DNA of 64,000 nt, from assembly GCF_025685545.1 (NCBI RefSeq), contig NZ_JAGSYC010000022.1, forward strand, positions 124,001 through 188,000. The letters are read 5' to 3'. This DNA comes from Granulicella paludicola. GTDB taxonomy: Bacteria > Acidobacteriota > Terriglobia > Terriglobales > Acidobacteriaceae. Shown one piece after another: positions 27,394 to 44,251 of this stretch. Position 1 is the first letter of the stretch. Each line of letters begins with the position of its first letter. The notes under the pieces were generated by a model, which saw only the letters and a program-made list of their open reading frames with translations, searched no databases and was not told the origin of the DNA. A program made the translations under genes and the position numbers.

Positions 27394-27766
27394 CCGACTC
27401 CTTCTCGCTTGGTACGGACCGTCCTCTTAGACAGAAGCGGACGTCGCCCAGCGTTATCTGCAAGGTTAATAGACGATGCATCACCCCGTCATCTTTCGCG
27501 CGGACTCGACATTGATATCACTACGCCGCACGGACACTTTGCGATACACTTCTATGGAAATACACCTGTTTTTTTGATCCCTGCCTCGCTCAGCGGAGAT
27601 GAAGCTTGACCGACTCTGCGGTGCCGGGACTGATCTTCTCCAGCTTCCGGTCTCGCACGCTGGATGACAAAAAGGCTTTAGGAATCAAACAAATCCATTC
27701 AAGTAATGGCTCGACACGAGTAGTATCAAACTGTCACCAATAGTGCATTTTGGAGGAATTAGTATC
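27394..27766. other. Intergenic region between xdhC and the OmpA-like gene
   Basis: No gene is called in this 373-bp stretch between divergent genes. It should carry both promoters. GGAGG at 27752-27756 is the ribosome site of the OmpA-like gene. A poly-T run (TGTTTTTTTGA) is at 27568-27578. I see no convincing hairpin or paired -35/-10. Confidence 0.4.
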
Positions 27767-29443: not shown

Positions 29444-29466
29444 CTCACACAGACAGCTGTAAAAAC

Positions 29467-29510
29467 GAGGGCCGTAGGGGATCAGGAAAACCTGATCATC
29501 TACGGCCCTC
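29467..29510 (+). terminator. Long hairpin terminator after the OmpA-like gene
   Basis: A 20-bp arm from GAGGGCCGTA to GATCAGG (29467-29486) pairs with CCTGATC to TACGGCCCTC (29491-29510), 18 of 20 positions matching, with an AAAA loop. It begins 23 bp after the stop codon. Confidence 0.85.
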
Positions 29511-29662
29511 AAACTTCTGGTAAACTAAATTTCGTTGGCAACCAGCGGGAAGTTCCTCAGCTGGTCAGCGGACGGTTCGGCTCAAGCATCTTCCCGGAGC
29601 CTGCAACCTCCTCTCTTAGGCTGGCATACCACCTCATCCGAAGTTCTTCGGTTGCATGGCGT

Positions 29663-29793
<131 letters not shown>

Positions 29794-30024
29794 CCTGATA
29801 GTTAGAACACCGATTGAATCGTTCGAAAGGCCGCCTAGCGGTCTGGCCTCCTATTACGATCTCTCCCTAAAGCTAAGTAATTATGCCCCAATCGCGAGTT
29901 CGAAATAGCTCCCACCGGCTATCCGCGCTTGCGCCTCGAGAGCCATCAAGAGACGATTTAAACTGCTGCTCGCTCGTCTCACGGTAGTTGATCTTTTGCT
30001 TCCAGAAGTCACTCTGGGTTCTTT
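29794..30024. other. Non-coding stretch between the att-like repeat and the island operon's end
   Basis: No gene is seen. It contains the second similarity block to the distal repeat at 29897-29913. It is the downstream end of the minus-strand operon but has no clear terminator hairpin. Confidence 0.4.
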
Positions 30025-31134
30025 TCAGAGAGCTTTAGACAAGCCCACCCCACCGCGGCGAACACTCTTGAAGACCAGGCGAAGCTTACGGATACAAGCA
30101 ATTAGCCATTGGTTTTCGATGTGAAACCTGGCTGCAAGCGCACGATCCTCACTGCTGTTTGCTCCCAACACATAGAGCAAATAGCGCACCTGAGCCACTC
30201 GGGTCGGTCTCAAGATAAAAAAGAGCCGCCTTGGAGAACACCAGAAATTCTGCGTGTTTGAGGACTCAAAGAAACGTGACCAGAGACTCTCAGCAATACG
30301 GTCTATCCGAATCGCCGCCTTTGAATTGAGACTCAATTCCGCGCTGGTTTCTAAGCTATATAACTTTCGCGCCATAGCGTATCCGAGTTCCAAGATAGGT
30401 GCGACGAATTCTATGTCGCCCGCACGCACGGCACAAGCTGATGGGGTTCCCCACTTCTCGATCGCAAGAGCTACATCGAGGATGTAGCACAACTGCTCAT
30501 AGGAGTGCTTGATGCCGTGAACACACAAGAAAAGCAACTCATCCGACGGTGAGAGGACGTAAGCAGGCTGTCCGGCGAACGTGACAGGGGTCGAGTTCGC
30601 GAAGATGCGATCAAGATCGATACATAAGTCCTCCTGGCAGATGAGATCGAAATGAAGTTCGACCATGGTCGCGCCCCGTATCCATGTCTGATGTCGCCCT
30701 TCATCGTCGATGCCACGGATAAACCCTAGGGCAGTGAAGACATCCCCCGCTATTGCAAGGTCTCTATGCCGGACCAGCAGGTCGATATCTCGGCTCGTCC
30801 GCAGATTGGTGCCTCCATACAAACGTTCCGCCATGCTGGTTCCCTTGAGCAGAATGACCGGTAAGAACTCGGCAGCGAGCGCTTGCAGGATAGCTTTCAC
30901 TTGAGAGGTCCACCAGAAGTTGCTGATGGTTATTTCGCGCTCAGCAGCGGCGCACCGGAGGTCGAACTCTTGGGGCAGAGCAAAGTCGGCGCTTCGTAAT
31001 TTGAAAAGGAAGAACGGGAGAACTCTTTCCAGTTCGGCGCGATCAAAAGCCTCCTGTAGCTGCACAGGAAGGAGCGTCGAGACATCTTCGCCTTCGCGCA
31101 ATACAGAGAGAAGTGCTTCCATTCCTCGTGTCAT
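30025..31134 (-). CDS. Nucleotidyltransferase family protein (NTP_transf_5-like), last gene of the PqqD operon
   Basis: A 369-residue cytoplasmic protein of the uncharacterised nucleotidyltransferase family found beside HprK-like kinases and PqqD-like proteins in peptide-modification and exopolysaccharide loci. The core motif at residues 95-121 is LLKGTSMAERLYGG followed by LRTSRDIDLLV: a Gly/Ser loop and the DxD metal-binding pair (Asp116, Asp118). Further family marks are WIRGATMVELHFDL and LSPSDELLFLCVHGIKHSYEQLCYILDVALAIEKW. There is no signal peptide. Its ATG overlaps the kinase-like gene's stop by 4 bp (ATGA), so the two are translationally coupled. The substrate is not known; nucleotidylation of a peptide or protein is one possibility. 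Confidence 0.85.
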   Translation of the reverse strand: MTRGMEALLSVLREGEDVSTLLPVQLQEAFDRAELERVLPFFLFKLRSADFALPQEFDLRCAAAEREITISNFWWTSQVKAILQALAAEFLPVILLKGTSMAERLYGGTNLRTSRDIDLLVRHRDLAIAGDVFTALGFIRGIDDEGRHQTWIRGATMVELHFDLICQEDLCIDLDRIFANSTPVTFAGQPAYVLSPSDELLFLCVHGIKHSYEQLCYILDVALAIEKWGTPSACAVRAGDIEFVAPILELGYAMARKLYSLETSAELSLNSKAAIRIDRIAESLWSRFFESSNTQNFWCSPRRLFFILRPTRVAQVRYLLYVLGANSSEDRALAARFHIENQWLIACIRKLRLVFKSVRRGGVGLSKAL

Positions 31135-31955
31135 CGAAGGCCCTGAATATTGTTGTTGTTATGTGCACATGAAAGGCTTGCAAGCAACGCAGCGCTCGTC
31201 GCATCCGCCTCGCCTCGGGAAGAAGTCCATGCCGTGGCGTTGCGCAGCATGGCGGCGAGCGTTGCCATTACGCGGATCGGGGTTCGCTGAACGGGTATGG
31301 AATGCTTGAGCATCTCGAGCAACGCCAGGCCGTGGCTGACGCTCTGCGCGGACCAGTGAGAGCCTTTTACATAATGAGTGAAGACGATCATGGATACAGG
31401 CAAACGGCCCGCACCAATCGAGCCGCCTAGTTCTGAAACAGGCATACTTCGTTGCAGGGCATCGCCCGGTTTCCGCATGGACAGGTCTCGGGCATAGGGG
31501 TGCACAAAGCCCTCATCGTCGAGGACGGCGTACTCGTCCGAGTAATACGCTGCACCAGCACGAACGAGCGCGGCAGTCAGGGTGCTCTTGCCCGCAAAGC
31601 TTGTACCAGGAAGAACGAGAGCTTTGCCATTGAGAGCAACCACGCCTGCGTGCACGAAGACATATCCTTCAGCGTAGTTGGCGACGTGAATCATCAGCGC
31701 CTGCCTAAGGGCATCGCAGACAGAGGTCAAGTCTTGCGACTCGAGAAGGACCTCTGTTCCCTCGCAGCAGCGAAAGCGAGTAACTTCTCCGAATGATGAT
31801 AGGGAGAAGCTTTGCGCAGCTGGATTTGCACTCGAGCCCATTTCTGTCCCGAAAGGTAAAAGCGAGGACAGCTCTGCGAACAACTCGGGAGTCTCCGCAG
31901 CGAGGCACATAGGCACGCCATAGGCGGTACAGTGCAGTAGGTTCGCCAATATCAT
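31131..31955 (-). CDS. HPr kinase-like P-loop protein (lasso-peptide-kinase-like)
   Basis: A 274-residue cytoplasmic protein that resembles the C-terminal half of HPr kinase/phosphorylase. From residue 99 it reads VFVHAGVVALNGKALVLPGTSFAGKSTLTAALVRAG with Walker A at 116-125, then YYSDEYAVLDDEG (139-148), the HprK-type acidic motif. The HPr-binding N-terminal half of true HprK is absent, and no ptsH-like gene is near. In paeninodin-type lasso clusters, proteins of this kind phosphorylate a C-terminal Ser of the precursor (known of that family). Here the likely target is a neighbouring product, for example the Ser-rich tail of the PqqD fusion (inference). The ATG at 31955 is 10 bp after the upstream NHL gene's stop; the next gene overlaps by 4 bp. 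Confidence 0.86.
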   Translation of the reverse strand: MILANLLHCTAYGVPMCLAAETPELFAELSSLLPFGTEMGSSANPAAQSFSLSSFGEVTRFRCCEGTEVLLESQDLTSVCDALRQALMIHVANYAEGYVFVHAGVVALNGKALVLPGTSFAGKSTLTAALVRAGAAYYSDEYAVLDDEGFVHPYARDLSMRKPGDALQRSMPVSELGGSIGAGRLPVSMIVFTHYVKGSHWSAQSVSHGLALLEMLKHSIPVQRTPIRVMATLAAMLRNATAWTSSRGEADATSAALLASLSCAHNNNNIQGLR

Positions 31956-31965
31956 GGGTAATAGC

Positions 31966-33831
31966 TCACGGTTGAGAGGGTGGCCCCAACAGAGGTGTCT
32001 TTACAGGACTTGCCAGCCCGACGAACTCGGTCATTGTGTTGCTGCCCGAGTTAGATAGCCATAGGTTGCCGCTGGCGTCGATGGCGATACCATACGGCTC
32101 ATGCAAGGGAGCGTCCAACCCAAAACCCGCGGCAGGCGAACGAAGCGTTGCCGTGTTCGCAGTGAGTGCCGTGATGCTGTTACCGAAGTAGTTTGCGGCC
32201 CATACGGTTCCGGCGCTGTCGATGGCGATGCCCTTTGGAGAAACGCCGGTGCTTGCGGTACTGATCGTCGCGACAGTCTGACCTGCCGACGAAAGCTCGA
32301 TGACACTGTACGCTCCGTAGTCTGCTATCCATACGTCGCCGGACGGGTCGACTGCTATGCCTTCGGGATCAACACAGCAGGAGTAGGTGCTGACGTCGCC
32401 GAGAGGAGTTACATGCGCGATTCCCTTTTGCAAGGCGAACCAGGCGTTCTGCGAAGCGTCGATGGCTACCGCGGACGTAAACGGAAGTTGCGAAGCTGCG
32501 TATCCGGATGCGCCAGAGACAGCAGTACCATCGGATGCAAGCAGGCTTGCCGAAGAGCTGCCGTAGTCCGCAACCCAGATAGATCCACTGGACGTCGCCG
32601 CGACTGACAGTGGATAGTAAACCCCACCAGCGGTGTAGCCAAGGCCGGACAGCTCCGCACCCAAGGAGCTGAATTTACTGATGCTTCCGGAGTATCCGTT
32701 TGTCGGGGTGAAACTCTGCTGGTTCGTGACCCATGCGTTATCGGAGCCGTCTACCGTTATCCCATAGGACGCGTATAGTCCCGCACCATGAAATCCATCG
32801 GGCGCAGCTGGAACGCCGGTAGAGGAGAACTTCGAGACAGCACCGCCAGCGTAGTTGGCGACCCACACGCTTCCACTCGAGTCGATCGCGATACTTCCTG
32901 GAGTGGATAACCCCCCGCAGCCAGAGGTGCAGTTGCCGTAGGTCACGGACAGTGTCCAGTCCTGTGGCGCGGCACTGAGTTTCGGCTGAAACGTGGTCTG
33001 CCCTGCGCTAGCCATGAACACAGCTGCGACATTTCGAGCGGGATTACGAATGATATTCAGGACTGCCTGCAGGATCGTCGAGGGCGCCGATCCTCCTTGC
33101 GTGGCGCCTGCGAAGAGCGATCCACAAGACGTTCCACCATTAGACCCAGTGCACCCCGCCAGCGCATCCGCGAGCGTATTGATCTTGGCCGTCTCGAGTT
33201 TCGCGGCGACGGGCAGACTTGCTCCTGGCGAGAGTCCGGTTGACGTGTTGGCGAGGTTTTCCGCGAGGGCGAATGCATTGCGCAGACCCATAGCGTTGGT
33301 GGCGGATGCGCCGATACTTGCATCCGTCCCGAAGAAGGATGTCAGAGCCCAGGCCGCAGCTGCCGTTGTTGCCTCATTCACGACAGTGTTCCCTGCTGTT
33401 GATATGTTGCCACAGTCCCCCAACACAGCGACAAGCACGATGGCCTGATTCGTTGTGCCGCTCGCTGGTCCCGGAATGCCGCCTCGCGCTACGAAATAGG
33501 TCTGTGTCGTGGCGGTGGAACAGGTGAAGCTCTCAGCGATGCTGAACAGCCCCGAGCTATCGGTGAGGGGTGCCTGCCCAGACAGCAGAGCGACCGCACC
33601 CATTCCGTTACCTGAGGCTCCAGCAGCAAAGAGCATCACAGAGGCTCCGATCACCGGTTGCCCCGCTGCGTACACATGACCAGTCAACGTGCTACCCAGA
33701 GGGGTGACAGGACTGACCACCGTGCCAGGCGCGGCCCCGCAACCCGAGAGAGCCGCGATGACACAGAGAGCTATGATCGCTGTTACTGCGCTTAGCCATC
33801 GTCTAGTTGGATTCGTCAGCGATGCATACAT
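31966..33831 (-). CDS. NHL-repeat beta-propeller lipoprotein (paralogue 1)
   Basis: A 621-residue exported lipoprotein with lipobox IALCVIAALSGCG. Residues 45-130 are a carboxypeptidase-regulatory-like Ig fold (LTGHVYAAGQPVIGASVMLFAAG). A region shared with the protein at 34386 follows: AAAAWALTSFFGTDASIGASATNAMGLRNAFA and KINTLADALAGC. From about residue 310 an NHL/Vgb-like propeller has repeated blades of the form PGSIAIDSSGSVWVANYAGGAVSKFSS, PEGIAVDPSGDVWIADYGAYSVIELSS and PYGIAIDASGNLWLSNSGSNTMTEF. I start at ATG 33831 with AAAGG upstream rather than the in-frame TTG at 33837. No catalytic residues can be assigned. It is the fourth gene of the island operon, 34 bp after the PqqD fusion gene. 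Confidence 0.85.
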   Translation of the reverse strand: MYASLTNPTRRWLSAVTAIIALCVIAALSGCGAAPGTVVSPVTPLGSTLTGHVYAAGQPVIGASVMLFAAGASGNGMGAVALLSGQAPLTDSSGLFSIAESFTCSTATTQTYFVARGGIPGPASGTTNQAIVLVAVLGDCGNISTAGNTVVNEATTAAAAWALTSFFGTDASIGASATNAMGLRNAFALAENLANTSTGLSPGASLPVAAKLETAKINTLADALAGCTGSNGGTSCGSLFAGATQGGSAPSTILQAVLNIIRNPARNVAAVFMASAGQTTFQPKLSAAPQDWTLSVTYGNCTSGCGGLSTPGSIAIDSSGSVWVANYAGGAVSKFSSTGVPAAPDGFHGAGLYASYGITVDGSDNAWVTNQQSFTPTNGYSGSISKFSSLGAELSGLGYTAGGVYYPLSVAATSSGSIWVADYGSSSASLLASDGTAVSGASGYAASQLPFTSAVAIDASQNAWFALQKGIAHVTPLGDVSTYSCCVDPEGIAVDPSGDVWIADYGAYSVIELSSAGQTVATISTASTGVSPKGIAIDSAGTVWAANYFGNSITALTANTATLRSPAAGFGLDAPLHEPYGIAIDASGNLWLSNSGSNTMTEFVGLASPVKTPLLGPPSQP

Positions 33832-33865
33832 GGTCAACCTTTCCCATCGGTTTAGCCGTGCTTCA

Positions 33866-34354
33866 CTACTGAGAGACGCCCGACGAGGAGCCGCCGTCCT
33901 TCGTGGAAAAGATATCAGTGTTGGGATTGGCGCGATTGGGTGCTGGCGCAGTGCAATTTGCGCATCCGCTGTAGGCCTGCGCCGCAGTGGGGGCGGTGAT
34001 GGCTATGACGACAGGCAACAGCATGGCGGCACGGGCTCCTAGCTTGAGCATGGCATCGCGGCGGGAGAGAGTCACCGAAGCAAGATGTGCGTTTGACTCG
34101 AGCAGGCCATCGCGCATCAAGTCCGCGAGTGCGTACTGCACGAGTTCTTCGGTGACAGGCATAGCCAGAGCGAGCGAAGCTGCAGCTGCGATCACAGCTG
34201 CAGTCGTCGCGCCGTCGCAGCAGCTCCAGATGGCCGCGGCAACAGGGTTCAGGCAGTATGCCTTGTGCGTTTGTTCGTCGTAAATCAGCGTCTCCTGGCC
34301 TACCTGCTGGATGGACAGTTGCAGCGTTCTGCGGCGTGGTAGCGGGTTCGACAT
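33866..34354 (-). CDS. PqqD-domain protein fused to a Tat-like signal segment and a Cys/Ser-rich tail
   Basis: A 162-residue protein in three parts. Residues 7-92 are a PqqD/RRE-type winged helix (LIYDEQTHKAYCLNPVAAAIWSCCDG, then LVQYALADLMRDGLLES). Residues 97-127 are a twin-arginine-like export segment: SRRDAMLKLG, hydrophobic AAMLLPVVIAITAPT, and a peptidase-like AAQA. Residues 128-162 are a 35-residue tail with CANC (Cys131, Cys134), Pro/Asn-rich middle and the end KDGGSSSGVSQ. PqqD domains bind leader peptides of ribosomally made, modified peptides (known); a fusion to its own secreted tail suggests leader and product in one chain (inference). ATG 34354 has GGAG 8 bp upstream. It lies between two NHL lipoprotein genes. 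Confidence 0.85.
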   Translation of the reverse strand: MSNPLPRRRTLQLSIQQVGQETLIYDEQTHKAYCLNPVAAAIWSCCDGATTAAVIAAAASLALAMPVTEELVQYALADLMRDGLLESNAHLASVTLSRRDAMLKLGARAAMLLPVVIAITAPTAAQAYSGCANCTAPAPNRANPNTDIFSTKDGGSSSGVSQ

Positions 34355-34385
34355 TGGTATCTCCTTGGCCCAGCTTGCGGATCGT

Positions 34386-35717
34386 TTACTTGGGGTTGAT
34401 CGCGATGGCGAGCGGTGTCGTGATGCCGCTGCCTGTGTAGGGTGAGCCGGTGAGCGCTGCTCCCGAAGAACTGAACGCGCTCACGCTGGCGTTGCCGCTG
34501 TTACTCACCCACACGTTGCCCGTGCCGTCGATGGCGATGCCCTTTGGCGCGTTGAGCTGTGCACTGCTGCCATATGATGTGCTGGAGGTGCCGAGCGGAG
34601 CGAGCTTCGTGATCGTGTTGCCGCCGCTATTCGCGACCCAGGCGTTGCCGCTCTGATCAATCGCCAGTGCGTACGGCACGCTAATGTTCTGCGTGAACCC
34701 TGTTGCCGTCGAGAGCGCAGTGCCAAGCGGATTGAACTCGGAGACACTGCTGTTGCCCGCGTTCGCAACCCATATATTGCCCTCCTGGTCGGTCGCGATG
34801 CCCTGCGGATTGCTCAGACCTCCGCCCGAGTGCGTGATCACGATCGACCACGATAGCGGCGGTAAGTTCACATCAAGTGCCGGCGAAAACACCGGCGAAG
34901 CCGAGCGAAGCATATTCAGCGACGCAACATTCGTCGAAGGATGCTGCGCGATGAACAGCGCTGCTGAGATCGTGTCCGACGTGCCGCCCGTAAGATAGAA
35001 CAGCTTATCGCAACCGTTGCCCGTCGACGTTCCGTTCGAGGCAACACCATCGCTTCCGCCGGAGTTGATGCACTGCTCGAGGATGTCGGCGAGCGTGTTG
35101 ATCTGCGCAAGAGGCAGCACCGCGCCGCTCGGCAACGATGGTCCGGAGACAGCGCCAGTCGCCGTGTTGACCATCTTGTTGATGTTCGCGAACGCGTTTG
35201 CGATGCCGACTGTATTTGTTGCTGAAGAACCGATATGCGTTGCGTTCGTCATGAACGGAGACAGCGCCCAGACTGTAGCGACGGTTGTCACTTCATTCAT
35301 GTCGATGAAGTTATTCGCGATCGTTGAGCACTTCCCAAGGCCGACCATCAGCGCAAGGTTCGTATTCGTCACCGCCGGCGTGCTGCCAACCGCCGCGATC
35401 GGCTGGCCACCTGTGCCGACAATATACGTCATTGCATCGCCTGGGCAGGTGTACGCAGGCAGGTTGAAGTTGCCATACGCTGTGGTCACGAACGGAGCTC
35501 CAAGCGGAGTCGCCGCCGAACCATAGCCCGTCATGCCAACGGTGTATAGCTGCAACGAGATCCCGCCTACCGGCTGCTGGCCACCCATCACGATTCCGTT
35601 CACCTTCGTCGATGCTGGAACCGTGATAGGCGACGTGCTTGTAGACGAGAGAGTGCCAAGACCGCAACCCGTCGTGAGAAGAAGAACTGCGCTGACTACA
35701 AGAAGCTTCATGTTCAT
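34386..35717 (-). CDS. NHL-repeat beta-propeller lipoprotein (paralogue 2)
   Basis: A 443-residue exported lipoprotein with lipobox VSAVLLLTTGCG. It has the same plan as the protein at 31966: an Ig-like N-terminal fold (VNGIVMGGQQPVGGISLQLYTVG), a shared middle region (TVATVWALSPFMTNATHIGSSATNTVGIANAFA; LAQINTLADILEQC), then four NHL blades (PQGIATDQEGNIWVANAGNSSVSEF, PYALAIDQSGNAWVANSGGNTITKL, PKGIAIDGTGNVWVSNSGNASVSAF). The propeller is shorter and may be incomplete without a partner. The ATG at 35717 has AGGAG 7 bp upstream and overlaps the giant gene's stop by 4 bp (ATGA), so translation is coupled. It ends 31 bp before the PqqD fusion gene. Confidence 0.85.
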   Translation of the reverse strand: MNMKLLVVSAVLLLTTGCGLGTLSSTSTSPITVPASTKVNGIVMGGQQPVGGISLQLYTVGMTGYGSAATPLGAPFVTTAYGNFNLPAYTCPGDAMTYIVGTGGQPIAAVGSTPAVTNTNLALMVGLGKCSTIANNFIDMNEVTTVATVWALSPFMTNATHIGSSATNTVGIANAFANINKMVNTATGAVSGPSLPSGAVLPLAQINTLADILEQCINSGGSDGVASNGTSTGNGCDKLFYLTGGTSDTISAALFIAQHPSTNVASLNMLRSASPVFSPALDVNLPPLSWSIVITHSGGGLSNPQGIATDQEGNIWVANAGNSSVSEFNPLGTALSTATGFTQNISVPYALAIDQSGNAWVANSGGNTITKLAPLGTSSTSYGSSAQLNAPKGIAIDGTGNVWVSNSGNASVSAFSSSGAALTGSPYTGSGITTPLAIAINPK

Positions 35718-38700
35718 GGACGTGCTCCTGGGGTACCGCTCGTGACCGCTGTAGACAGTGGCGCTGCCGGTCCAGCTCCGCCGATGATCTCGTCAACCGT
35801 ATTGGTCGTAGGGTTGGCGATCCACACATCGCCAGAAAGGTCGATCGCGATGGAGGATGGTGCAGCCGTCGTGCTGCCTTGCGCAACAGAGGCGACAGCA
35901 CCGGCATTCGACAGCAGCGTAAACTTGCCGCTGCTGTTGGTCACCCATATCTGGGAGTTGCCATCGATAGCCAGCGCCGACGCCCCAACCAAGCCAACAT
36001 TGTTGTATTCGTTGACCCCTGCGCCCAGAGACGAGAAGCGCGAAATACTCGTGCCGGTGTTCACGATGGACCACATGTGCCCAGAGGAATCGACGGCCGC
36101 GCCCACCCCACCGTAGGCCGTTCCCGGGGATGTCAAGCTGCCGTTGTTGGCGAACGATTCGATTTTGCCGCTACCCGCAACAAAGACGAGTGGAACGAGA
36201 ACGGCGTAGCTTTGCGAGACCTGCGTCGCTGCGGCGTAGTTGCCGCTGGCAGCCTGCGATGCCGTGATGCTGCAGGTGCCTCCCGCAACGTCGGTGATAA
36301 CACCCGATGCCACGGTGCAGACCGATGTCGTGGTTGACGTGTAGGTGATCGCCGCGGGCGAGTTGGAGGCGGCGGCGAGTACCGGAGGCGTTGCCGAAAT
36401 CACCGTGTCGGCGAGTGCGGGAAAGGTGATCGTGGAGGCGATTGCCGTATAAGTGAACTTATCGGCCGTGACGACTGGCGACGTACCGGCTGCGGTGGTA
36501 ACGGTGATGTCAACAACGCCAATATCACCAGGGGGCGAGACTGCAGTAACTCGAGTTGCGCTGACATACGTAACGCTGCTTGCCGCCGCACCGCCAAACG
36601 ATACCGTCGCGCCACTTGCAAACTTCGTTCCTGTAATCGTCACGGTGGTGCCTCCGGCAGCCGACCCGCTCGTCGGAGAGATCGCCGTCACCGTCGGTGG
36701 CAGATAGGTGAACTGGTCAGCCGGAGTCGTTGTGCTGGTGCCTTGGTAGGTCACGGTGATGTCCACCGTGCCCGAACTATGGGCAGGCGCCGTTACGGTT
36801 ATCGAAGTCGTACCATTCACCGTCACTGTAGTAGCCGCTGTTGTGCCAAACGACACTGTCGCTCCGGTGAAGAACTTGGTGCCTGTGATCGTCACAGTCG
36901 TGCCAGCAGATCCACTCGCTGGCGAGACCTTAGTCACGGTGGGTGGCCCATAAGCATAGCCGGTCAGGTTGATTGCCTGGGTGGCAGAGACAGCATTCAG
37001 ATTATTGTTCGTGAGAGTGAGCGTCCCGGTAGTTGTGCCATCGGCGGGAACGACCGGTGCAAATATGATCGGCAGGTTGCAGGTGGCGCCGGACGCAAGC
37101 GAGGCCGTCGTGGAAGAGGAGGTGAGCACAGGACATTCTCCAGAGTCGCCAACCTGCAGACCGAAGTTTGTGGACGCGCTGGGGTTGACGCCGCTCGAAG
37201 GAACACTAAAGATAAGCGGCTGGGTGCCGTAGTTGGTAATCGAGGTTGTCAGCGGTTGCGAGGAAGATCCATCATTTTCTTGGAATTCAAAGGACAAGGT
37301 GGGTGGGCTTGAGCGAGTGAGTTCGAAGATACCGGCCACTCCGCCGGTGGTAAATCCATCACTGGAGACATACATATTTCCTTGTTCGTCCAGGCTAATC
37401 CCGAACTGTGACGTGATCTGAAAGATGCTCTGGACACAGGAAGAACTGAAGCAGTTCGGCGGCATTATGTCGATGCTGCCGGTTCCGTAGTCGGCGATGT
37501 AGACATTTCCGTTGGGATCGACTGCCACTCCCATTGCACTCGCGAAGCTGCCGCCTCCCAGCGCGGTGACGCAGCTTGCCGAAAGGCAGTCCGGAGACAG
37601 CATATCGACGACGGGTGTGCCGGGAACGACGAAGTAAACATTTCCCGCGAAGTCGATCGTCATTGTCTGGTAGGTGGAGAGACTGCCGACGCCACCGCCC
37701 AGATTCTCATAGCAACTGGAAGACAAACAGTCCACTGGAATCTCCGTAAGGCCCTTCGTGCCGGGGACATAGATATTGCCGCTCATGTCTACGGCAAGCC
37801 CTGTTCCACCCGTAACGGTTGCGCGTGTGGAGGCACAGGAGCCGCGACATCCGGGTGGCAGGACGACCACATCCGTGGAGCTCAATACATATATGTTGCC
37901 GATTCCATCGACCGCCAGAGCCGTCGGCTGCAGACTGGGCAAAGAGATCTGCGACTGGCAACCAGAGCCCAGGCAGCCTGCCGGGATGACGGTGATGTAG
38001 TATGCGTTTGTGCCATTGGATGATGGCAAATACAACGTACCGGCGCCATCCATCGCAAAACCTTGCTGCGATCCATAGATCTGGGTAGGCGACGACGCTG
38101 GATAGATGATCTGGGGTCCCATCCCCTGGCCGGCGATATAGGCACTCGCGACGATTGCCGCGGATGTTCCGGAACCTGTCGAAAGCGCAATGCCTCCGCT
38201 GCGAATACCTGGATAAAGCGGTTTGAAGGTGTAGTTGACGGTGCAGGTCGCGCCTACGGCATAGGCCTTGCCGCTCACGCAGCTACCGCCTGTGGCGAGG
38301 TTGTAGTCCAAGCCGCTGGCGCCCATAGTCGTCACGCTTGTGGTCAAGGCCGCACCCGCGCTTACCGCTGTGGTAAAGGTCAGGGTTGCGGTCAGCGTGG
38401 GGCTCGAGGTTCCGACGTTCTCTACCAGAACCACCTGGAAGCTCTGTGGCACAGACGCAGCCGCTCCATAGTGTCCCGTTGCACTCTGCGATGCTGTGAT
38501 GGTGCAGGTGCCCAGCTTGAGATCGGTAATAGAGGTTCCAGCGACCGTGCAGACCGCCGGTGTATTTGTGGTGTAGGTAACCGGCTGACCCGAGGTAGCG
38601 GTGGCCGTGAGTGCCGGAGGAGCGCCTCCTAGAGACGCGTCCGCCAACACCGGAAAGGTGATCACATTCAACAGTGTGTTCGTGTAGGTGAACTGATCGC

Positions 38701-40540
38701 CTGCGGTTTTGATGCTCTCACCCTGTGCGTTGGTGGCTTGGATATCAACGACGCCGACCGCCTCGGCGGGTGCAACGGCGGTCATCTGGGTGGCACTCAC
38801 CAGATGAAAACTACTCGCGGGCGCGCTGCCGAATTTGACTGCGTTCACCGCACCCAGGAAAGTACCATTGAGGGTGACCGTCGTTCCCCCTGCGGGCAAG
38901 CCGTCGGTAGGCGAGATAGAGGTGATGGCAGGAACGGTCGTGGTGGCGCTTCCGCTCAACGCAATCGTCTGTGTCGATGCCGAGACATTAGCATTGTTGT
39001 CGGTCAGGACCACGCTCCCAGCCACCGTGCCGCTTTCCGGCAAAACTGGGGCGAAGTTGATGGTGAGTGTGCAACTCGCATTGGCGAGCAGAGTTGCCGC
39101 GGAGCCACCGGCGCTGACAGAAGGACAAGCACCCGTGCCACCGGTTGCCAGTGTGAAGCTCGAGGAGACACTTGGATTCACGCCCGAAGACGGCTCGGAG
39201 ATAGTGAGCGGTTCGTTGCCAAAGTTGGTCAACGTGACGGTCTGAGGCGTTCCAGTCGAGCCGTCGTATACGTTTGGAAATGTCACGGATGGCACGGTTG
39301 CCCGAAGGATCTCGCTTATCGTGGTGTTACCGTCATCCGCAACATAAAGATTTCCACTTCCATCCAGGGTTACACCGATGGGATTGCTGAACGCGCTGCT
39401 AATGGTCGTGACACAAGTACTCGCGTCAGCAGGAGTGCAGTTGGGCGTCATCACCTTGACTTCGCTGTTGCCCGAGTCGCCGACGTAGACGTTTCCGTTG
39501 GCGTCCACGGCCACCCCCGAGGGGCCGTTGAAACCACCCCCAAGCGTCGTGATAGCACAGCCGCTGATGCAGTTTGCAGGCGTTGATTTGATGGCATTGT
39601 GGCCGTAGTCCACGATGTAGATAATCCCATTGGCGTCCACCGCAATGTCCTGGGGGTCCAGGAAGCCGTATTCTATCGTCAACACGCAGGAAGAGGACGT
39701 ACAGCCGCCCGGAATCTCCTTAATCGCGTTGTTTCCGGAGTCCGCAATGTAGACCAGTCCATTCGCATCCACCTTGACGCTTGTGGGTTTGTAGAATCCG
39801 CCCGCCAGGGGCAACGCACAAGTTGCGACGGCGCAATCAGGTGCCATCTCTTTGACAAGGCTGGCGGTATAGTCCGCAACGTAGATGTTTCCGGCACCAT
39901 CCAGGGCGACGGAAGCTGGTCCTTCAAATCCTCCGCCTACAGTCGTCACGCAACTCGCGGTCGTGCAGCCCACAGGAATCTTCAAGACGTTTCCGCCTCC
40001 GAAGTTGGCGACATAGATATCGCCAGCACCGTCTATAGCTAAGTTTTTAGGGCGGCTGTAAGTTCCCGGCAATGTGTTGGTCGTCGTCTGCGGAAAGATC
40101 GTTTGTGGGCCGGTACCTATGGCGGAGATGAGCGTCGTCGCCATCACCGCGCCTCCGTTCGAAATCAGTTCCACCGCGCCGTAGCGTATACCGGAATACT
40201 TCGGCTTGAAGGTGTACTTGATAGTGCAAATAAAACCACTGTCTTCGACAGTCGAGACCGGACAGGTGCCTCCACTCGCATAACTGAACTCCTGATTTGG
40301 CGACCCCTCCGTCAATACAACGAACGCGGTTGCCGGTGTCGTGCCGGTTGTATTCGATAGCGAGACCGAGACTTCGACGGTAGCAGTTTGCACCGCGCTG
40401 GTCGTCCCGATCGGCACGGTCAACTGCGCCATGGTGGTTTGCGCCGCACCCGCCAGCAGCACCAGCGTGGCAAGTCCCGTGACCATAGAAACCTTTGAGC
40501 GGTGAAGAATAGAACCTGATGATGGGGAGACGTGGATCAT
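35714..40540 (-). CDS. Giant secreted NHL-propeller/IPT protein, first gene of the PqqD operon
   Basis: A 1608-residue secreted protein. Signal peptide: MVTGLATLVLLAGAAQTTMAQ. Order of modules: a choice-of-anchor-like domain; a six-blade NHL propeller (PKNLAIDGAGDIYVANFGGGNVLKI and repeats); choice-of-anchor-D; an IPT/TIG domain (ITSISPTDGLPAGGTTVTLNG); an MBG-like domain; a second anchor domain and propeller; anchor-D again; two IPT/TIG domains; a second MBG-like domain; and a C-terminal region with NHL-like strands similar to the two lipoproteins. Nearly every propeller blade carries a Cys pair 3-8 residues apart (GCTTASC, CTSSSC, CLSSSC, CFSSSC). I start at ATG 40540 with GAGG about 8 bp upstream; the open frame continues to 40660 without a better start. 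Likely a surface or released scaffold. The following gene overlaps by 4 bp. Confidence 0.82.
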   Translation of the reverse strand: MIHVSPSSGSILHRSKVSMVTGLATLVLLAGAAQTTMAQLTVPIGTTSAVQTATVEVSVSLSNTTGTTPATAFVVLTEGSPNQEFSYASGGTCPVSTVEDSGFICTIKYTFKPKYSGIRYGAVELISNGGAVMATTLISAIGTGPQTIFPQTTTNTLPGTYSRPKNLAIDGAGDIYVANFGGGNVLKIPVGCTTASCVTTVGGGFEGPASVALDGAGNIYVADYTASLVKEMAPDCAVATCALPLAGGFYKPTSVKVDANGLVYIADSGNNAIKEIPGGCTSSSCVLTIEYGFLDPQDIAVDANGIIYIVDYGHNAIKSTPANCISGCAITTLGGGFNGPSGVAVDANGNVYVGDSGNSEVKVMTPNCTPADASTCVTTISSAFSNPIGVTLDGSGNLYVADDGNTTISEILRATVPSVTFPNVYDGSTGTPQTVTLTNFGNEPLTISEPSSGVNPSVSSSFTLATGGTGACPSVSAGGSAATLLANASCTLTINFAPVLPESGTVAGSVVLTDNNANVSASTQTIALSGSATTTVPAITSISPTDGLPAGGTTVTLNGTFLGAVNAVKFGSAPASSFHLVSATQMTAVAPAEAVGVVDIQATNAQGESIKTAGDQFTYTNTLLNVITFPVLADASLGGAPPALTATATSGQPVTYTTNTPAVCTVAGTSITDLKLGTCTITASQSATGHYGAAASVPQSFQVVLVENVGTSSPTLTATLTFTTAVSAGAALTTSVTTMGASGLDYNLATGGSCVSGKAYAVGATCTVNYTFKPLYPGIRSGGIALSTGSGTSAAIVASAYIAGQGMGPQIIYPASSPTQIYGSQQGFAMDGAGTLYLPSSNGTNAYYITVIPAGCLGSGCQSQISLPSLQPTALAVDGIGNIYVLSSTDVVVLPPGCRGSCASTRATVTGGTGLAVDMSGNIYVPGTKGLTEIPVDCLSSSCYENLGGGVGSLSTYQTMTIDFAGNVYFVVPGTPVVDMLSPDCLSASCVTALGGGSFASAMGVAVDPNGNVYIADYGTGSIDIMPPNCFSSSCVQSIFQITSQFGISLDEQGNMYVSSDGFTTGGVAGIFELTRSSPPTLSFEFQENDGSSSQPLTTSITNYGTQPLIFSVPSSGVNPSASTNFGLQVGDSGECPVLTSSSTTASLASGATCNLPIIFAPVVPADGTTTGTLTLTNNNLNAVSATQAINLTGYAYGPPTVTKVSPASGSAGTTVTITGTKFFTGATVSFGTTAATTVTVNGTTSITVTAPAHSSGTVDITVTYQGTSTTTPADQFTYLPPTVTAISPTSGSAAGGTTVTITGTKFASGATVSFGGAAASSVTYVSATRVTAVSPPGDIGVVDITVTTAAGTSPVVTADKFTYTAIASTITFPALADTVISATPPVLAAASNSPAAITYTSTTTSVCTVASGVITDVAGGTCSITASQAASGNYAAATQVSQSYAVLVPLVFVAGSGKIESFANNGSLTSPGTAYGGVGAAVDSSGHMWSIVNTGTSISRFSSLGAGVNEYNNVGLVGASALAIDGNSQIWVTNSSGKFTLLSNAGAVASVAQGSTTAAPSSIAIDLSGDVWIANPTTNTVDEIIGGAGPAAPLSTAVTSGTPGARP

Positions 40541-40857
40541 GACGTGGGCCTCAGACTGGTTGAGAACGCGGGTGACCGGTTGCTTTGTACAAGTCATTGC
40601 GCTCGGCGGACAGACGCTCACGAAAAATGCGAGCGCAGAAGGAGTTAAACCAACTGGCACTGCTGAGGGAACCGGCAGTTATGCAGTTCAGATTCCCGGT
40701 GATATGGCGCTGAAAGAATCTCTGTAGACGAACCTTAGGCGATTGCGCGCGACAGGACGATGTATTCCAGCTAAAATCGGTCTAACTTCGACATAACGGT
40801 CCAACCGCATTCTTTTCAACGCCAGACTCAACGCCTTAGGGCCCATGACTCGGATTT
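40541..40857. other. Divergent promoter region of the island operon and its regulator
   Basis: This 317-bp stretch separates the start of the six-gene operon (minus) from the regulator gene (plus), so both promoters should lie here. An 11-codon frame at 40844-40879 (starting MTRIYGH) overlaps the regulator start in another frame and might be a leader peptide, but support is weak. I cannot assign -35/-10 boxes with confidence. Confidence 0.45.
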
Positions 40858-43113
40858 ATGGCCACGCACGTGAACGATGACTCCTCTTCGAAGCAGAACA
40901 GGGTACGCTTCGGGGCATTCGACTTCGACCTTCGACGCCAGGAACTACGCAGGCAGGGGCACCTCATCCGGCTGCCAGCCGCTCAACTTCGCCTGCTCAA
41001 TCTGTTCCTGGAGCGGCCCGGCGATCTGATCACGCGTGAGCAGATCAGCTCCCACCTGTGGAACGATACCGGCACAATCGATGTGTCGAGCGGCATCAAC
41101 ACCTCCATCAATCGGCTGCGTGGCAACCTCAGCGACCCACTGAACTCTGCCGAATACATTGAGACAGTGATTGGTCTCGGCTATCGCTTCGTAGCCGAAG
41201 TGGTGCCCGTATCTGCGCCTAGGGCCGAGTCGCACGAAGCTGCAACGCCACCCCCAACAACGCTCGATATGGCGCCACCTGCACCGGCTGCTCTTCACGA
41301 ATTCGCGGAGACGTCTGCCGCGGCACAGCGCCGATCATTTTCACATCGACAACGGCTGGCGGTGGGGAGCCTCCTGCTTCTGGTTGTCGCCGGTTCAGTC
41401 GCACTGTGGCGCAGGGGCCGATCCAGGCCGAGCATTGTCGCCTTGTCCGCAACGAGGCCCTCTCCGCTCTTTCACCTTAGGCCTGTGACTTCGACCGCCC
41501 CGGGTGAGGCGATCTCCGCAGTCGCCGTATCGCCGGACGGAAGATCCGTGGCTTTCAGCAACCGCGCGGGCGTCTCCGTGCATACATTTGGAGGCGGGGA
41601 CATACTGCTGCCCTCGCGACCGTTCTTTCAGGTCAGCCGCATCTCATGGTTTCCGGATGGAACTCACTTATTGCTGAGTGGAATGGATACCCAGACGCAT
41701 CGGCATCAGGTATGGGGTGTACGCCTCGGAGAAGGTTATCTGCGATTCTTTGCGGATGATGCCGATCTGGCGACGGTCTCTCAGGATGGAAGCTCCGTTG
41801 CCTATACGCGGCAGAACGGCATGGAACTTTGGGTGGCAGGTGCTGGCAACGACGGCGCGCATCAGCTTCTGGCTGATCCTCGAGGCAGCTTTCCCTACCT
41901 GATCTGGTCTTCGGCGGGCGATCATCTGCTGGTCGACCATCGAGCAGCATCCCCGGGCTCCGACAGCTATGAATCAATCGACGCCCGAAACGGAATAGTG
42001 CTGGCCCGCGAGAGCCACATGGTCTTCTCGTCGGGCTACCTGCTTCAGGATGGACGGCTCTACTTCCCGCTCACGGAGTCGGCTAATCCTGCAGCTGGGC
42101 AGACACAGTTAATGCTGGTTCACACCGATCCTAAAACGGGGAAGGCGCTGGATAAACCGCAGATGCAGCAACTCTTCAGCGGATACGGCAGAGCCCTTTC
42201 GGCCTCACTTGACGGCAAAAGAATCGCGCTTGCGCTCGATTACGCCACGGTAAACGTCTTCGTTGCGGACCTTCGTCGGCCCGGCCCTACGCTTGAGAAC
42301 GTTAGAGAGTTGCCGCACAAAGTAGAAGAGAGCTATCCCCATGCATGGACGTCCGACAGTCGAGCTGTTTTGTCCGAAAGCAGCGCGCTGGGTGTATGGG
42401 CCATCTTCAAGCAACCTCTGGACGCTGCAGAATCCCAGCTTGTTGCGAAGCTTCCTACCGGCGCCGCCATGGCCCAAATCTCTCCGGATGGGCGCTGGAT
42501 ATTGTTCCTTCAGTTCGCGAAAAGCAACACCCCGCCAATTGGCTTCTTTCGGGTCCCGGTAACCGGGGGCGTGGTCTCGCAGGTCCCGGTCAGCACCCAG
42601 CTTGAAGACTTTGTGTGTTCTGTCTCCGCCAACGGGAGCTGTGTCGTACGTGAAACAATCGGCAACACGGAATTGGTTTACTCTGCGCTCGATCCTCTCA
42701 CGGGCGTCGGACGGGAACTGGCGCGAACTCCCTGGCATCCTATCGTGCTGGGTGACTGGGGTCTCTCGCCGGATGGCTCCACTCTCTCAATAACCGATCA
42801 CGACGTCGTTCACCCTAGCATCCACCTGGTAAGTCTGGCCGGCCGACGCGCGGAAGGCCCCAGCGAACTACCGCTCCGCGGACATGGGACGCTGTGGGGC
42901 TCAAACTGGGCTGCCGACGGGCGTTCGCTCTTCGTTGAGTGCAGAACCAAGGATGGCTTTGAGCTGGTGAACCTAGATCTCGGCGGTAAAGCCGTCGTGC
43001 TACGCAAGAGTTCCGTAACGCTGTGGGGCATTCCATCACGAGATGGAAAGAAACTTACTTTCCCCGACCGAACTAGCAGCAACAATGTATGGGCCTCTGA
43101 CACCATGCAGTGA
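40858..43113 (+). CDS. Membrane transcription regulator: OmpR-type winged helix fused to a TolB-like propeller
   Basis: A 751-residue one-component regulator of the CadC/ToxR layout. Residues 15-115 are a Trans_reg_C winged helix (VRFGAFDFDLRRQELRRQG; LITREQISSHLWNDTGTIDVSSGINTSINRLRGNLSD; YIETVIGLGYRFVAEV). A Pro/Ala linker and one membrane helix (LAVGSLLLLVVAGSVALW, about 167-184) follow. The outer part is a WD40/TolB-like propeller with repeated DG turns (ISAVAVSPDGRSVAFSNR, RISWFPDGTHLLLSG, MAQISPDGRWILFLQ, WGLSPDGSTLSITDHD). It would read a periplasmic signal and bind DNA directly. The gene is divergent from the operon of NHL proteins, PqqD fusion and kinase, the obvious candidate target (inference). 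The start codon has no clear ribosome site. Confidence 0.88.
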   Translation: MATHVNDDSSSKQNRVRFGAFDFDLRRQELRRQGHLIRLPAAQLRLLNLFLERPGDLITREQISSHLWNDTGTIDVSSGINTSINRLRGNLSDPLNSAEYIETVIGLGYRFVAEVVPVSAPRAESHEAATPPPTTLDMAPPAPAALHEFAETSAAAQRRSFSHRQRLAVGSLLLLVVAGSVALWRRGRSRPSIVALSATRPSPLFHLRPVTSTAPGEAISAVAVSPDGRSVAFSNRAGVSVHTFGGGDILLPSRPFFQVSRISWFPDGTHLLLSGMDTQTHRHQVWGVRLGEGYLRFFADDADLATVSQDGSSVAYTRQNGMELWVAGAGNDGAHQLLADPRGSFPYLIWSSAGDHLLVDHRAASPGSDSYESIDARNGIVLARESHMVFSSGYLLQDGRLYFPLTESANPAAGQTQLMLVHTDPKTGKALDKPQMQQLFSGYGRALSASLDGKRIALALDYATVNVFVADLRRPGPTLENVRELPHKVEESYPHAWTSDSRAVLSESSALGVWAIFKQPLDAAESQLVAKLPTGAAMAQISPDGRWILFLQFAKSNTPPIGFFRVPVTGGVVSQVPVSTQLEDFVCSVSANGSCVVRETIGNTELVYSALDPLTGVGRELARTPWHPIVLGDWGLSPDGSTLSITDHDVVHPSIHLVSLAGRRAEGPSELPLRGHGTLWGSNWAADGRSLFVECRTKDGFELVNLDLGGKAVVLRKSSVTLWGIPSRDGKKLTFPDRTSSNNVWASDTMQ

Positions 43114-43630
43114 TCGAAGCATCACAATCAAGTAAGGACCGCCCACACACGCTAAAGGGCATGGGCTGCAATGCTGGTTTCTGCTCGTACAGCGACTGCC
43201 GAGCCAGAGTGGGACCAGCAATTCTTCTCATGCGTGTACTGACTTAATTTTAATTACCACCGATGCTCTAGCTGGGACTGTGTGGAATGGGTCAGGAAGT
43301 TCGAACCTGCGCCCTATCCGTCAGACCGCGCAAGCCGAAAAATTCGAAAATCGTCCACCAGGGCCGACCATTTCATCATGTTGGCCCTTTCGTAGATCAT
43401 ATCGAACGGGTAACGAATGAAGGTTCACCCTTTAAGCACCCACTGAAAAGTCCGAAACAGCTCCCGCTCCTATGCTGTCGCGCATGAGAAGACGAAGGTA
43501 GCCACAAGCTTGTCGGCGTACAAGAGCCTGTTAGCGTAGCAGGGCCGAAATGGCAGGTTGGCCACTTTCCTTCGCGACCTAAAATCCCTCTGTCACTGCG
43601 GACCCTACGTCTTCCCCCATCGTCGGCGTC
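43114..43630. other. Non-coding region holding the distal island boundary
   Basis: No gene is seen in these 517 bp. It contains the distal att-like repeat at 43364-43422 and a second short similarity block at 43449-43465. A GTTCGAA heptamer at 43299-43305 recalls a tRNA T-loop but no foldable tRNA surrounds it. No integrase remnant is readable in any frame. Confidence 0.45.
43364..43422. repeat. Att-like direct repeat, copy 2 (distal island end)
   Basis: Starts CCGACCATTTC like the tRNA-Pro tail and matches 29733-29793 with about six differences over 59-61 bp. The bases just before CCGACCA (CCACCAGGG) do not match the tRNA, so only the last seven tRNA bases are duplicated. The degree of decay suggests an old event. 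Confidence 0.7.
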
Positions 43631-44251
43631 TCAGTGTTTCGTGGAAAAGAGTGAGAAAATCACGCCGCTACTGAGACGCAGGTCATTCTGATGATCCGTG
43701 TCACCATTTGCGTAGTTTGTGGTCAGGTACTCGATGTCGATCAATTTGAAGGATAGGCGGTGATGCAGTTTAAGGTTGATGCCTCCGCCGACCGTCGCTG
43801 CGAACGAATTACCGATGCCATCGCCAGCCAGACTTGGAGCTTTGGATAGACTGCCGCTAGCATACGCGCCGCCGATCGCGAGCTCGCCGTAAGGCTGCAA
43901 GTACGTATGCCTAAGCCGAGGTGAATAGCGTGCACCCGCCGTGTAGGTGAGGAGCGTGAGATCGTAATTGAGCGTACCGATCCCGCCCGCGTGTGTCGCT
44001 CCAACTTGAGCGACCAAAGAAACGGTCGAATCGTGTACAGGGCGCACATACGCAACACCGCCACCATTGAGATGAATGCATCCGCAGTTGCCGGGAGGGC
44101 CGTTGGTCCGCGTGTAGTCGTAAGTCAACTCGAGCGCGGAGGGTGTGCCGTGCCTGGGCTCTGCTTGTTGAGCCACCGCGAGGCGGAGCGCTGGCACGGC
44201 AAGACCAAGCAAAACGAGGGTGACGGGGCGAATGGCTCTTGTTATCTGCAT
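43631..44251 (-). CDS. Outer-membrane beta-barrel protein
   Basis: A 206-residue exported protein with signal peptide VTLVLLGLAVPALRLAVAQQ. The mature part has alternating strands of an OmpA/OmpW-type barrel: SALELTYDYTRTNGPPG, GGVAYVRPVHDSTVSLVAQVGATHAG, LTLLTYTAGARYSPRL, TYLQPYGELAIGGAYASG, FAATVGGGINLKLHHRLSFKLIDIEYLTTNYANG, and RLSSGVIFSLF at the C-terminus. A GNCGC pair of Cys in the first loop is unusual. ATG 44251 has AAGGA 5 bp upstream. It starts 9 bp after the giant beta-helix gene on the same strand, so they are probably one transcript and may work together at the surface. Confidence 0.85.
   Translation of the reverse strand: MQITRAIRPVTLVLLGLAVPALRLAVAQQAEPRHGTPSALELTYDYTRTNGPPGNCGCIHLNGGGVAYVRPVHDSTVSLVAQVGATHAGGIGTLNYDLTLLTYTAGARYSPRLRHTYLQPYGELAIGGAYASGSLSKAPSLAGDGIGNSFAATVGGGINLKLHHRLSFKLIDIEYLTTNYANGDTDHQNDLRLSSGVIFSLFSTKH

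What the first reader, a model, noticed from the sequence alone, without database searches (positions are those of the whole stretch)
30025..40540. Six-gene operon pairing a PqqD fusion, an HprK-like kinase and a nucleotidyltransferase with three secreted NHL-propeller proteins
Seen: six minus-strand genes with gaps or overlaps of -4, 31, 34, 10 and -4 bp, so almost certainly one transcript. Three encode cytoplasmic, modification-type proteins (PqqD/RRE, HprK-like P-loop, NTP_transf_5-type) and three encode exported proteins with NHL propellers. Known: PqqD-type domains present peptides to modifying enzymes, and HprK-like and nucleotidyltransferase genes accompany paeninodin-type lasso peptides. 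Inference: a small RiPP-like or protein-tailoring system whose product or scaffold works outside the cell. I know of no described system with this composition, and the usual lasso cyclase, protease and exporter are absent.
Basis: partly seen in the sequence, partly recalled or inferred. Interest (0 to 1): 0.9.

Follow-up and report, generated by a model that had tools for sequence, protein, structure and literature searches.

The report
Self-carried precursor for exported phosphopeptides
The six-gene operon is real, but its core is a widespread three-gene set in which one protein seems to carry its own recognition domain, its own export signal and a short peptide to be modified, probably by a dedicated kinase, before leaving the cell.

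Summary
In detail: six close minus-strand genes, NHL1-NHL2-PqqD-NHL3-HprK-NTP. The order recurs in G040 and G690, most genes 32-68% identical. It is rare: found in three of 398 sampled family genomes.

The recurrent unit is the triad. Of 65 distinct HprK loci from several phyla, 53 have a PqqD protein within 5 kb, 45 the nucleotidyltransferase, 42 both; no fourth gene family appeared in more than 7. The NHL proteins are a separate paralogous family.

The PqqD protein is probably the precursor. After an RRE-fold domain come an internal twin-arginine signal (58 of 63), an AxA site and a hypervariable tail. In one branch a tail Ser is fixed: 29 of 29, then 5 of 5 newly fetched sequences. The window's own three-member subtype lacks that Ser.

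Closest known: linear polyphosphorylated peptides (PMC13381572) and the lasso kinase BsfK (PMC10368454), where HprK-like kinases phosphorylate core Ser3; both pathways use a separate RRE protein. New here is an RRE fused to an apparent exported substrate. No modification has been shown.

The parts
33866..34354 (-). PqqD fusion, 162 aa: RRE domain, internal twin-arginine signal, 35-residue tail; proposed self-carrying precursor
   Evidence: PF05402 31 bits; predicted RRE fold, 82 residues at pLDDT 90 or more, best solved matches lasso B1 proteins TbiB1 5v1u and 6jx3; 51 of 51 aligned members match PF05402
34109..34294 (-). PqqD/RRE domain, residues 21-82
33974..34066 (-). internal Tat-like signal, residues 97-127, SRR to AQA
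   Evidence: R98 and R99 invariant in the 51 aligned; RR before the hydrophobic stretch in 58 of 63 (56 by script, two by eye); TatC present in the genome
33869..33973 (-). predicted exported tail beginning YSGCANCTAP
   Evidence: G040 has YTGCVNCTAP and G690 YNGCFDCTTP; position +2 is S, T, N; Thr at +8 and two Cys are shared
31131..31955 (-). HprK-like kinase, 274 aa
30025..31134 (-). NTP_transf_5 nucleotidyltransferase, 369 aa; candidate for sugar or nucleotide addition to the phosphate
   Evidence: PF14907 E 5e-40; DxD motif RTSRDIDLLV read by eye
31966..33837 (-). NHL3, lipoprotein with NHL propeller
   Evidence: NHL 69.7 bits; N-terminal domain family in 48 of 150 order genomes, 5 matches in this genome
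34386..35717 (-). NHL2, lipoprotein with NHL propeller
   Evidence: NHL 51.5 bits; 60% and 53% to G040 and G690
35714..40540 (-). NHL1, large secreted protein with NHL and TIG domains
40858..43113 (+). divergent regulator with Trans_reg_C domain, transmembrane segment by eye and PD40 propeller repeat; possible regulator of the operon
   Evidence: 72% identical and in the same place in G040; not upstream of the operon in G690, where an NHL3-like gene lies instead

Best explanation
The core is a three-gene phosphopeptide tailoring set, here placed inside an operon of NHL surface proteins. The PqqD fusion is both recognition element and substrate: its RRE domain stays in the cytoplasm, holds the kinase (and perhaps the NTP transferase) and brings the attached tail to them. 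The HprK-like kinase phosphorylates a Ser or Thr in the tail, and the NTP_transf_5 protein adds a sugar or nucleotide to that phosphate. The whole is exported through Tat by the internal RR signal, signal peptidase cuts after AxA, and the modified tail is left in the periplasm or on the surface, where in this operon the NHL lipoproteins may hold it. Shown by sequence: the three-gene association, RRE fold, internal RR-AxA signal, hypervariable tails, the fixed tail Ser in the main Terriglobia branch, and kinase catalytic residues. Inferred: docking in cis, phosphorylation, the second step, Tat export, cleavage and any NHL role.
For: Triad: PqqD within 5 kb in 53 of 65 distinct HprK loci, NTP in 45, both in 42; no further family in more than 7 of 65. 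Architecture: RR before a hydrophobic stretch in 58 of 63 PqqD-family ORFs (56 by script, 2 by eye); R98 and R99 invariant in the 51 aligned. Control: 32 loci with other PqqD genes (two in this genome, 30 strong PF05402 loci of the order); 30 could be read and none ends in such a signal and tail; L123 and L127 were not recovered. Tail: Ser at +5 in 28 of 28 branch members found by a QKAHA-type pattern, all four TCN codons used, while +1, +2, +4 and +6 to +14 have about 2.5 to 3.7 bits of entropy. With a register set only by the signal's Pro it is 29 of 29, then 5 of 5 in sequences fetched later. A basic residue at -4 in 27 of 28 fits Tat rather than Sec (recalled). More than one tail gene beside a kinase in L032, L036, L051, L069, L072 (four), L074 and L185, as RiPP precursors often are. 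Precedent: BsfK phosphorylates core Ser3 efficiently only with its RRE and accepts Thr (PMC10368454, section 23); LppK phosphorylates Ser3 of a linear core (PMC13381572, passages); PsmN is needed for hexoses on phospho-Ser (PMC9266682, passage). Kinase motif at the spacing of BsfK H148-G163-G168-K169-S170-D186 (against PMC10368454). In L073 a glycosyltransferase-2 domain is joined to the kinase beside a tail gene.
Against: No modification, export or cleavage has been observed. In the window's own subtype the residue at +2 is S, T and N in three genomes and there is no Ser +5; only Thr +8 is shared, so the acceptor there is unclear. In the other tails Ser/Thr at +2 is 21 of 30 (shuffle mean 5.6, maximum 14), but I chose the cleavage register by hand, sequences fetched later were not added, and an automatic control was badly framed and settles nothing. 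LppK did not accept Thr at its site (PMC13381572, passage), unlike BsfK. Twelve of 65 HprK loci have no PqqD within 5 kb; the script flagged RR-AxA in L067, L093 and L094, in ORFs that look spurious to me, and L093 and L095 hold PqqD-like stretches by eye that the profile missed. L051 tails lack RR; L108 and L192 end without a tail; L178 has RR without an in-frame hydrophobic stretch. NCBIfam's Tat model matches 2 of 51. The model shows no confident intramolecular leader strand and the tail is low-confidence. The second acidic residue of the kinase is Glu, not Asp.
Confidence: 0.5

Rival explanations
1. Membrane-tethered RRE: the RR segment anchors the PqqD domain at the membrane as a docking platform, the tail is a spacer without function, and the kinase acts on another protein, for example an NHL protein of the operon.
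For: Tails are hypervariable; the six-gene order is kept in three genomes, tying the NHL proteins to the triad.
Against: Few triads have an NHL-type neighbour: hits in WIN, L030, L031 (a TIG/fn3 protein by Pfam) and L173 only. A spacer would not be expected to keep one fixed Ser. Several tail genes can lie beside one kinase.
Confidence: 0.2
2. Six-gene system: triad and NHL proteins form one obligate machine.
For: Same order in three genomes of two genera, although the NTP gene has diverged to 32-34%.
Against: Triads without NHL are the rule; NHL2 and NHL3 occur without the triad behind a kumamolisin-like gene in L109, from a genome without kinase or PqqD matches; found in 3 of 398 family genomes.
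Confidence: 0.12
3. A remnant lasso pathway: the separate precursor, cyclase and B2 are encoded elsewhere and this set works on lasso peptides in trans.
For: The genome has a lasso-type cluster on another contig with PqqD, HprK-like, transglutaminase-like B2, NTP and Asn synthase genes (L048).
Against: That cluster has its own kinase and RRE; Asn-synthase homologues lie in 3 of the 65 kinase stretches and no homologue of that B2 was found at E 1e-5; the RRE here is fused to an export signal.
Confidence: 0.08
4. The HprK-like protein is a regulator that phosphorylates the PqqD domain or another cytoplasmic protein in response to metabolites; export of the tail is incidental.
For: HprK/P is a metabolic regulator kinase (recalled) and the fold match is to HprK/P and PEPCK.
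Against: HprK-like kinases described beside an RRE are peptide kinases (PMC10368454, PMC13381572).
Confidence: 0.1

Closest known systems
Linear polyphosphorylated peptides (LPP), Bacillota, PMC13381572 (section 6 and passages read)
   Same: RRE, HprK-like kinase and NTP transferase without lasso cyclase; precursors with a conserved N-terminal part and highly variable C termini, one to three per cluster; the kinase acts near the start of the core.
   Different: There the RRE is a separate protein, the precursor has a YxxPx leader motif, and the cluster has its own SipW-like peptidase and MsbA-like transporter. Here the RRE is fused to the likely substrate through an RR-type signal, and no such peptidase, transporter or leader was found in the operon.
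Phosphorylated lasso peptides (paeninodin, pseudomycoidin PsmK/PsmN, BsfA/BsfK/BsfB1)
   Same: HprK-like kinase, for BsfK helped by an RRE; an annotated nucleotidyltransferase, shown for PsmN to be needed for hexose on phospho-Ser (PMC9266682, PMC10368454).
   Different: No cyclase, B2 protease or lasso precursor in this operon.
HPr-rel-A system (TIGR04352 and TIGR04353, NCBIfam)
   Same: HprK-related kinase with a PqqD-family protein.
   Different: Both window proteins score far below the family cut-offs (69 against 200, 19 against 35 bits). What true TIGR04353 proteins look like after the domain was not tested (one search failed).
Vgb-lyase-like and NHL-propeller lipoproteins of Acidobacteriaceae
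   Same: NHL2 and NHL3 belong to this expanded paralogous group (48 of 150 order genomes, up to 18 matches in one).
   Different: Joined to the triad in this order only in the window genome, G040 and G690, among the places I looked at.

Membership tests
LPP (PMC13381572) | HprK-like kinase and NTP transferase | tested here: met
LPP (PMC13381572) | discrete RRE protein | tested here: not met
   RRE is the N-terminal domain of a 162-aa fusion with signal and tail
LPP (PMC13381572) | archaeal-type signal peptidase SpI in the cluster | tested here: not met
   no such domain in the six genes or the regulator; no such recurrent neighbour among the families listed, though single neighbours were not annotated
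LPP (PMC13381572) | MsbA-like transporter in the cluster | tested here: not met
   none among the six genes or the regulator; in relatives an ABC ATPase-like family (named by its sequence start) in 6 of 65 stretches
LPP (PMC13381572) | separate precursor with YxxPx leader motif | tested here: not met
   4 of 213 small ORFs (22-100 aa) at 27000-45000 hold the short motif; by position three overlap larger genes and one lies 3 kb away; none looks like a precursor to me
Paeninodin-type lasso peptides | lasso cyclase (Asn synthase) and B2 protease | tested here: not met
   absent from the operon; among relatives Asn synthase in 3 of 65 stretches, B2 in none at E 1e-5
HPr-rel-A system | TIGR04352 and TIGR04353 over cut-off | tested here: not met
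   69.1 of 200 and 19 of 35 bits
SynChlorMet cassette (ScmC, ScmD) | TIGR04249 and TIGR04248 over cut-off | tested here: not met
   13.6 of 125 and 21.5 of 100 bits
RRE / PqqD domain | PF05402 and beta3-alpha3 fold | tested here: met
   31 bits over cut-off 23.4; model strands 13-18, 21-26, 31-35 and helices 37-45, 52-63, 69-81; TbiB1 5v1u Foldseek E 1.1e-3, prob 1.00
RRE / PqqD domain | binds a leader peptide between beta3 and alpha3 | not testable with these tools
   no complex could be modelled
HprK-like peptide kinases | catalytic His, Walker A Lys-Ser/Thr and acidic pair | tested here: met
   H102, G117, G122, K123, S/T124, D140 at BsfK spacing; the second acid is E141 (PMC10368454 section 23)
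HprK-like peptide kinases | phosphorylates a peptide Ser or Thr | not testable with these tools
   needs experiment
Tat substrates | twin arginine, hydrophobic stretch, AxA site | tested here: met
   RR in 58 of 63; TatC in the genome
Tat substrates | curated Tat model TIGR01409 | tested here: inconclusive
   2 of 51 at E 0.01 or better
Tat substrates | export by TatC | not testable with these tools
   needs experiment

The most novel reading that the evidence does not exclude
A RiPP-like class spread over several phyla in which each precursor carries its own RRE in cis, followed by an internal Tat signal: a self-presenting, self-exporting substrate whose hypervariable cargo (Pro-rich, Gly-rich, cystine-knot-like or longer) is phosphorylated, and perhaps glycosylated on that phosphate, before export. 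In three Acidobacteriaceae genomes it is wired into an operon of NHL surface lipoproteins that display or anchor it.
Probability: 0.4. Interest if true: 0.82.

Novelty: new variant of a known kind. Interest (0 to 1): 0.64.

Why it matters
RREs are described as separate proteins or as parts of larger proteins, typically modifying enzymes (PMC7470986, PMC12710340, passages). One fused to its substrate and to an export signal would be a new way to run a RiPP-like pathway, with presentation and secretion built into one chain. It would give an identity to some of the unexplained long PF05402 proteins: the 2025 RRE survey counts 21% of proteins matching PF05402 as above the discrete size with no other Pfam annotation (PMC12710340, section 6). 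It also predicts modified residues that can be tested by mass spectrometry; named strains holding such sets include Silvibacterium bohemicum S15 (L077) and Edaphobacter lichenicola X5P2 (L078).

Tried and rejected
Single-protein scan of genome contigs with the window HprK found no relative; the profile scan found 47 loci. Sequence search of solved structures: no hit for the kinase profile, only weak chance-level rows for the PqqD fusion and the NTP. A hidden short precursor beside the operon: 213 small ORFs, 4 with the short leader motif, none convincing. A fourth conserved gene: none beyond 7 of 65 loci (crude ORF calling from 80 aa, so short genes could be missed). Promoter and terminator scans found no more than shuffles do. 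The automatic control for Ser/Thr after AxA misplaced the site and used mostly improper controls; discarded as uninformative. One search counted Ser +5 in new sequences with a pattern that itself demanded that Ser, so it proves nothing; I repeated it with a register set by the signal's Pro alone. There the rule also flagged L058 and L062, which have another signal type (PQNALA) and Cys at +5; they are not counted in the 29.

Literature: the listings and passages seen showed no description of a PqqD/RRE domain followed by a Tat signal or of an RRE fused to its substrate. Only open-licence PMC papers are held and most listed papers were not opened, so this is no proof of novelty. Read: PMC13381572 section 6 and passages; PMC10368454 sections 23 and 26 and passages; PMC12710340 section 6 and passages; PMC7470986 and PMC9266682 passages; all others only as search listings.

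Rows left out: alignment A2 holds 51 PqqD-family ORFs; L051 (two), L060, L066, L075, L088, L090, L092, L097, L108 and the two L076 pieces were not put in, nor were the sequences. Alignment A1 holds 13 kinases.
Full report
What is there. Six minus-strand genes lie at 30025-40540 with gaps of -4 to 34 bases. From upstream to downstream they encode NHL1 (secreted, NHL and TIG domains), NHL2 (lipoprotein, NHL), a PqqD fusion of 162 aa, NHL3 (lipoprotein, NHL), an HprK-like kinase and an NTP_transf_5 protein. A divergent regulator gene with a Trans_reg_C domain and a PD40 repeat lies upstream at 40858-43113.

Is the six-gene order conserved? In the order sample of 150 genomes only G040 had a close PqqD fusion (66%; the next best 33%). 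L030 from it shows all six genes in order plus the regulator. In 398 family genomes 33 had the kinase family at E 1e-15 or better (at most six candidates a genome were scored). The stretches around these kinases were all looked at, 13 from the window, though several are cut by contig ends. One more, G690 (L173), shows the six genes in the same order. G533 and G570 carry kinases 48% and 45% identical to the window's. In L174 (G533) the order is HprK-NTP-PqqD and the contig ends just upstream of the kinase, so an NHL link there is open; in L175 (G570) the 2.5 kb upstream of the kinase hold no NHL or PqqD match and the contig ends inside or just after the kinase. Identity between the window and the other two operons runs from 32% (NTP) to 68% (NHL3), with NHL1 of G690 alike only in part. 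Keeping the order through such divergence speaks for a functional link, but it is a rare form.

The recurrent unit. A kinase profile (A1) gave 47 named loci and, in 399 class genomes, 22 places at E 4.2e-21 or better, with a long series of weaker and shorter matches to other P-loop proteins (a lower bound, as few candidates a genome were scored). After removing duplicates I had 65 distinct kinase loci. Within 5 kb, 53 have a PqqD-family gene, 45 the NTP gene, 42 both; 11 PqqD only, 3 NTP only, 9 neither; 17 of the 65 kinases lie within 3 kb of a stretch end. Clustering the neighbouring ORFs showed no further family in more than 7 of 65. Hosts named include Acidobacteriota, Alphaproteobacteria, Gemmatimonadota, Planctomycetota, Verrucomicrobiota, Eremiobacterota and Actinomycetota, mostly metagenome assemblies.

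NHL proteins are a separate module. The N-terminal domain of NHL3 is found in 48 of 150 order genomes, with five matches in this genome and up to 18 in others. In G034 (L109) an NHL2-NHL3 pair with tight spacing follows a kumamolisin-like gene and has no PqqD, HprK or NTP match in the 19.9 kb fetched; G034 is listed without kinase and without PqqD matches. L110, L111 and L112 each show one NHL3-like gene without the triad. At the kinase loci NHL-type hits were seen in the window, L030, L031 (and its duplicate L077; a TIG/fn3 protein by Pfam) and L173.

Architecture of the PqqD fusion. 51 of 51 aligned members match PF05402, and the arginines R98 and R99 are invariant among them. In the wider set of 63 PqqD-family ORFs at kinase loci a script found RR just before the hydrophobic stretch in 56, and two more (the second gene of L069, and L092) show it by eye; the five without are two of L051, two pieces of the broken L076 gene, and L108. 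The signal ends in AxA or the like and is followed by a tail, 12 to 151 residues long in the Terriglobia branch: Pro-rich, Gly-rich, Cys-rich or larger. Two of 51 match Pfam Toxin_29 and one Toxin_18 weakly, both small Cys-rich folds; I read this as a cystine-knot-like pattern and not as a function. As a control I took 32 loci with other PqqD genes, two in this genome and 30 among the strongest PF05402 hits of the order. 27 were placed by the profile and three read directly; none has a signal and tail after the domain, and two were not recovered. The predicted structure has the beta3-alpha3 RRE order with 82 residues at pLDDT 90 or more and a low-confidence tail. Its best solved matches are lasso B1 proteins.

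A fixed serine in a free tail. In the Terriglobia branch the signal ends in QKAHA or the like. Ser stands at +5 in 28 of 28 found by that pattern, with TCG 14, TCC 6, TCT 5, TCA 3; position +3 is Ala in 22; the other tail positions vary freely. With the register set only by the signal's Pro it is 29 of 29 (L092 added), and 5 of 5 in sequences fetched afterwards. In the remaining types Ser or Thr is at +2 in 21 of 30, against a shuffle mean of 5.6 and maximum of 14 in 5000; this depends on a cleavage site chosen by eye. The window subtype does not keep it: YSGCANCTAP, YTGCVNCTAP and YNGCFDCTTP share Thr +8 and two Cys, not the residue at +2. So the acceptor in the window protein is open.

How it probably works. 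In the Bradymonas lasso pathway the HprK-like BsfK phosphorylates core Ser3 poorly alone and well with the RRE protein BsfB1, and accepts Thr (PMC10368454, sections 23 and 26). In LPP the kinase LppK phosphorylates Ser3 of a linear core, without a cyclase, and does not accept Thr there (PMC13381572, passages). PsmN, an annotated nucleotidyltransferase, is needed for hexoses on the phospho-Ser of pseudomycoidin (PMC9266682, passage). The triad here has relatives of the same three parts, but the RRE is joined to the likely substrate and to an export signal. I propose presentation in cis, phosphorylation of the tail, a second step on the phosphate, Tat export and cleavage. Each step after the anatomy is inference.

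Verdict. Known parts in an unusual joining: a new variant of the kinase/RRE/NTP peptide-tailoring systems, with a cis-RRE precursor that I did not see described in the listings and passages of eight literature searches of an open-licence library. The six-gene operon is a rare, conserved extension of it into an NHL surface-protein operon.

Noticed in passing
G000 contig C22, L048 about 7600-13200: A lasso-type cluster in the same genome: Asn synthase, PqqD, HprK-like, transglutaminase-like B2 and NTP_transf genes.
   Followed up: partly
L073:6252-8345 and L076:6556-8646: Kinase with a glycosyltransferase family 2 domain in front (shown for L073 only) beside a PqqD-tail gene; hints that a sugar is involved.
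   Followed up: partly
L098:9949-10416, L099:10350-10838, L101:3438-4121: Tails with a Cys pattern like inhibitor cystine knots behind the signal (read by eye).
   Followed up: no
L072:7282-9752: Four tandem PqqD-signal-tail genes with different tails before one kinase.
   Followed up: partly
L034 and L042, about 12-19 kb: Triad near NusG-like, polysaccharide export and chain-length genes (names recalled from the ORF starts, not scanned), recalling the capsule setting of LPP clusters.
   Followed up: no
window 29663-29739: tRNA-Pro gene on the plus strand just beyond the 3' end of the operon; a possible integration site.
   Followed up: no
window 44261-50041: Another very large ORF with Ig-like repeats by eye near the operon; its link to the triad was not tested.
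   Followed up: no
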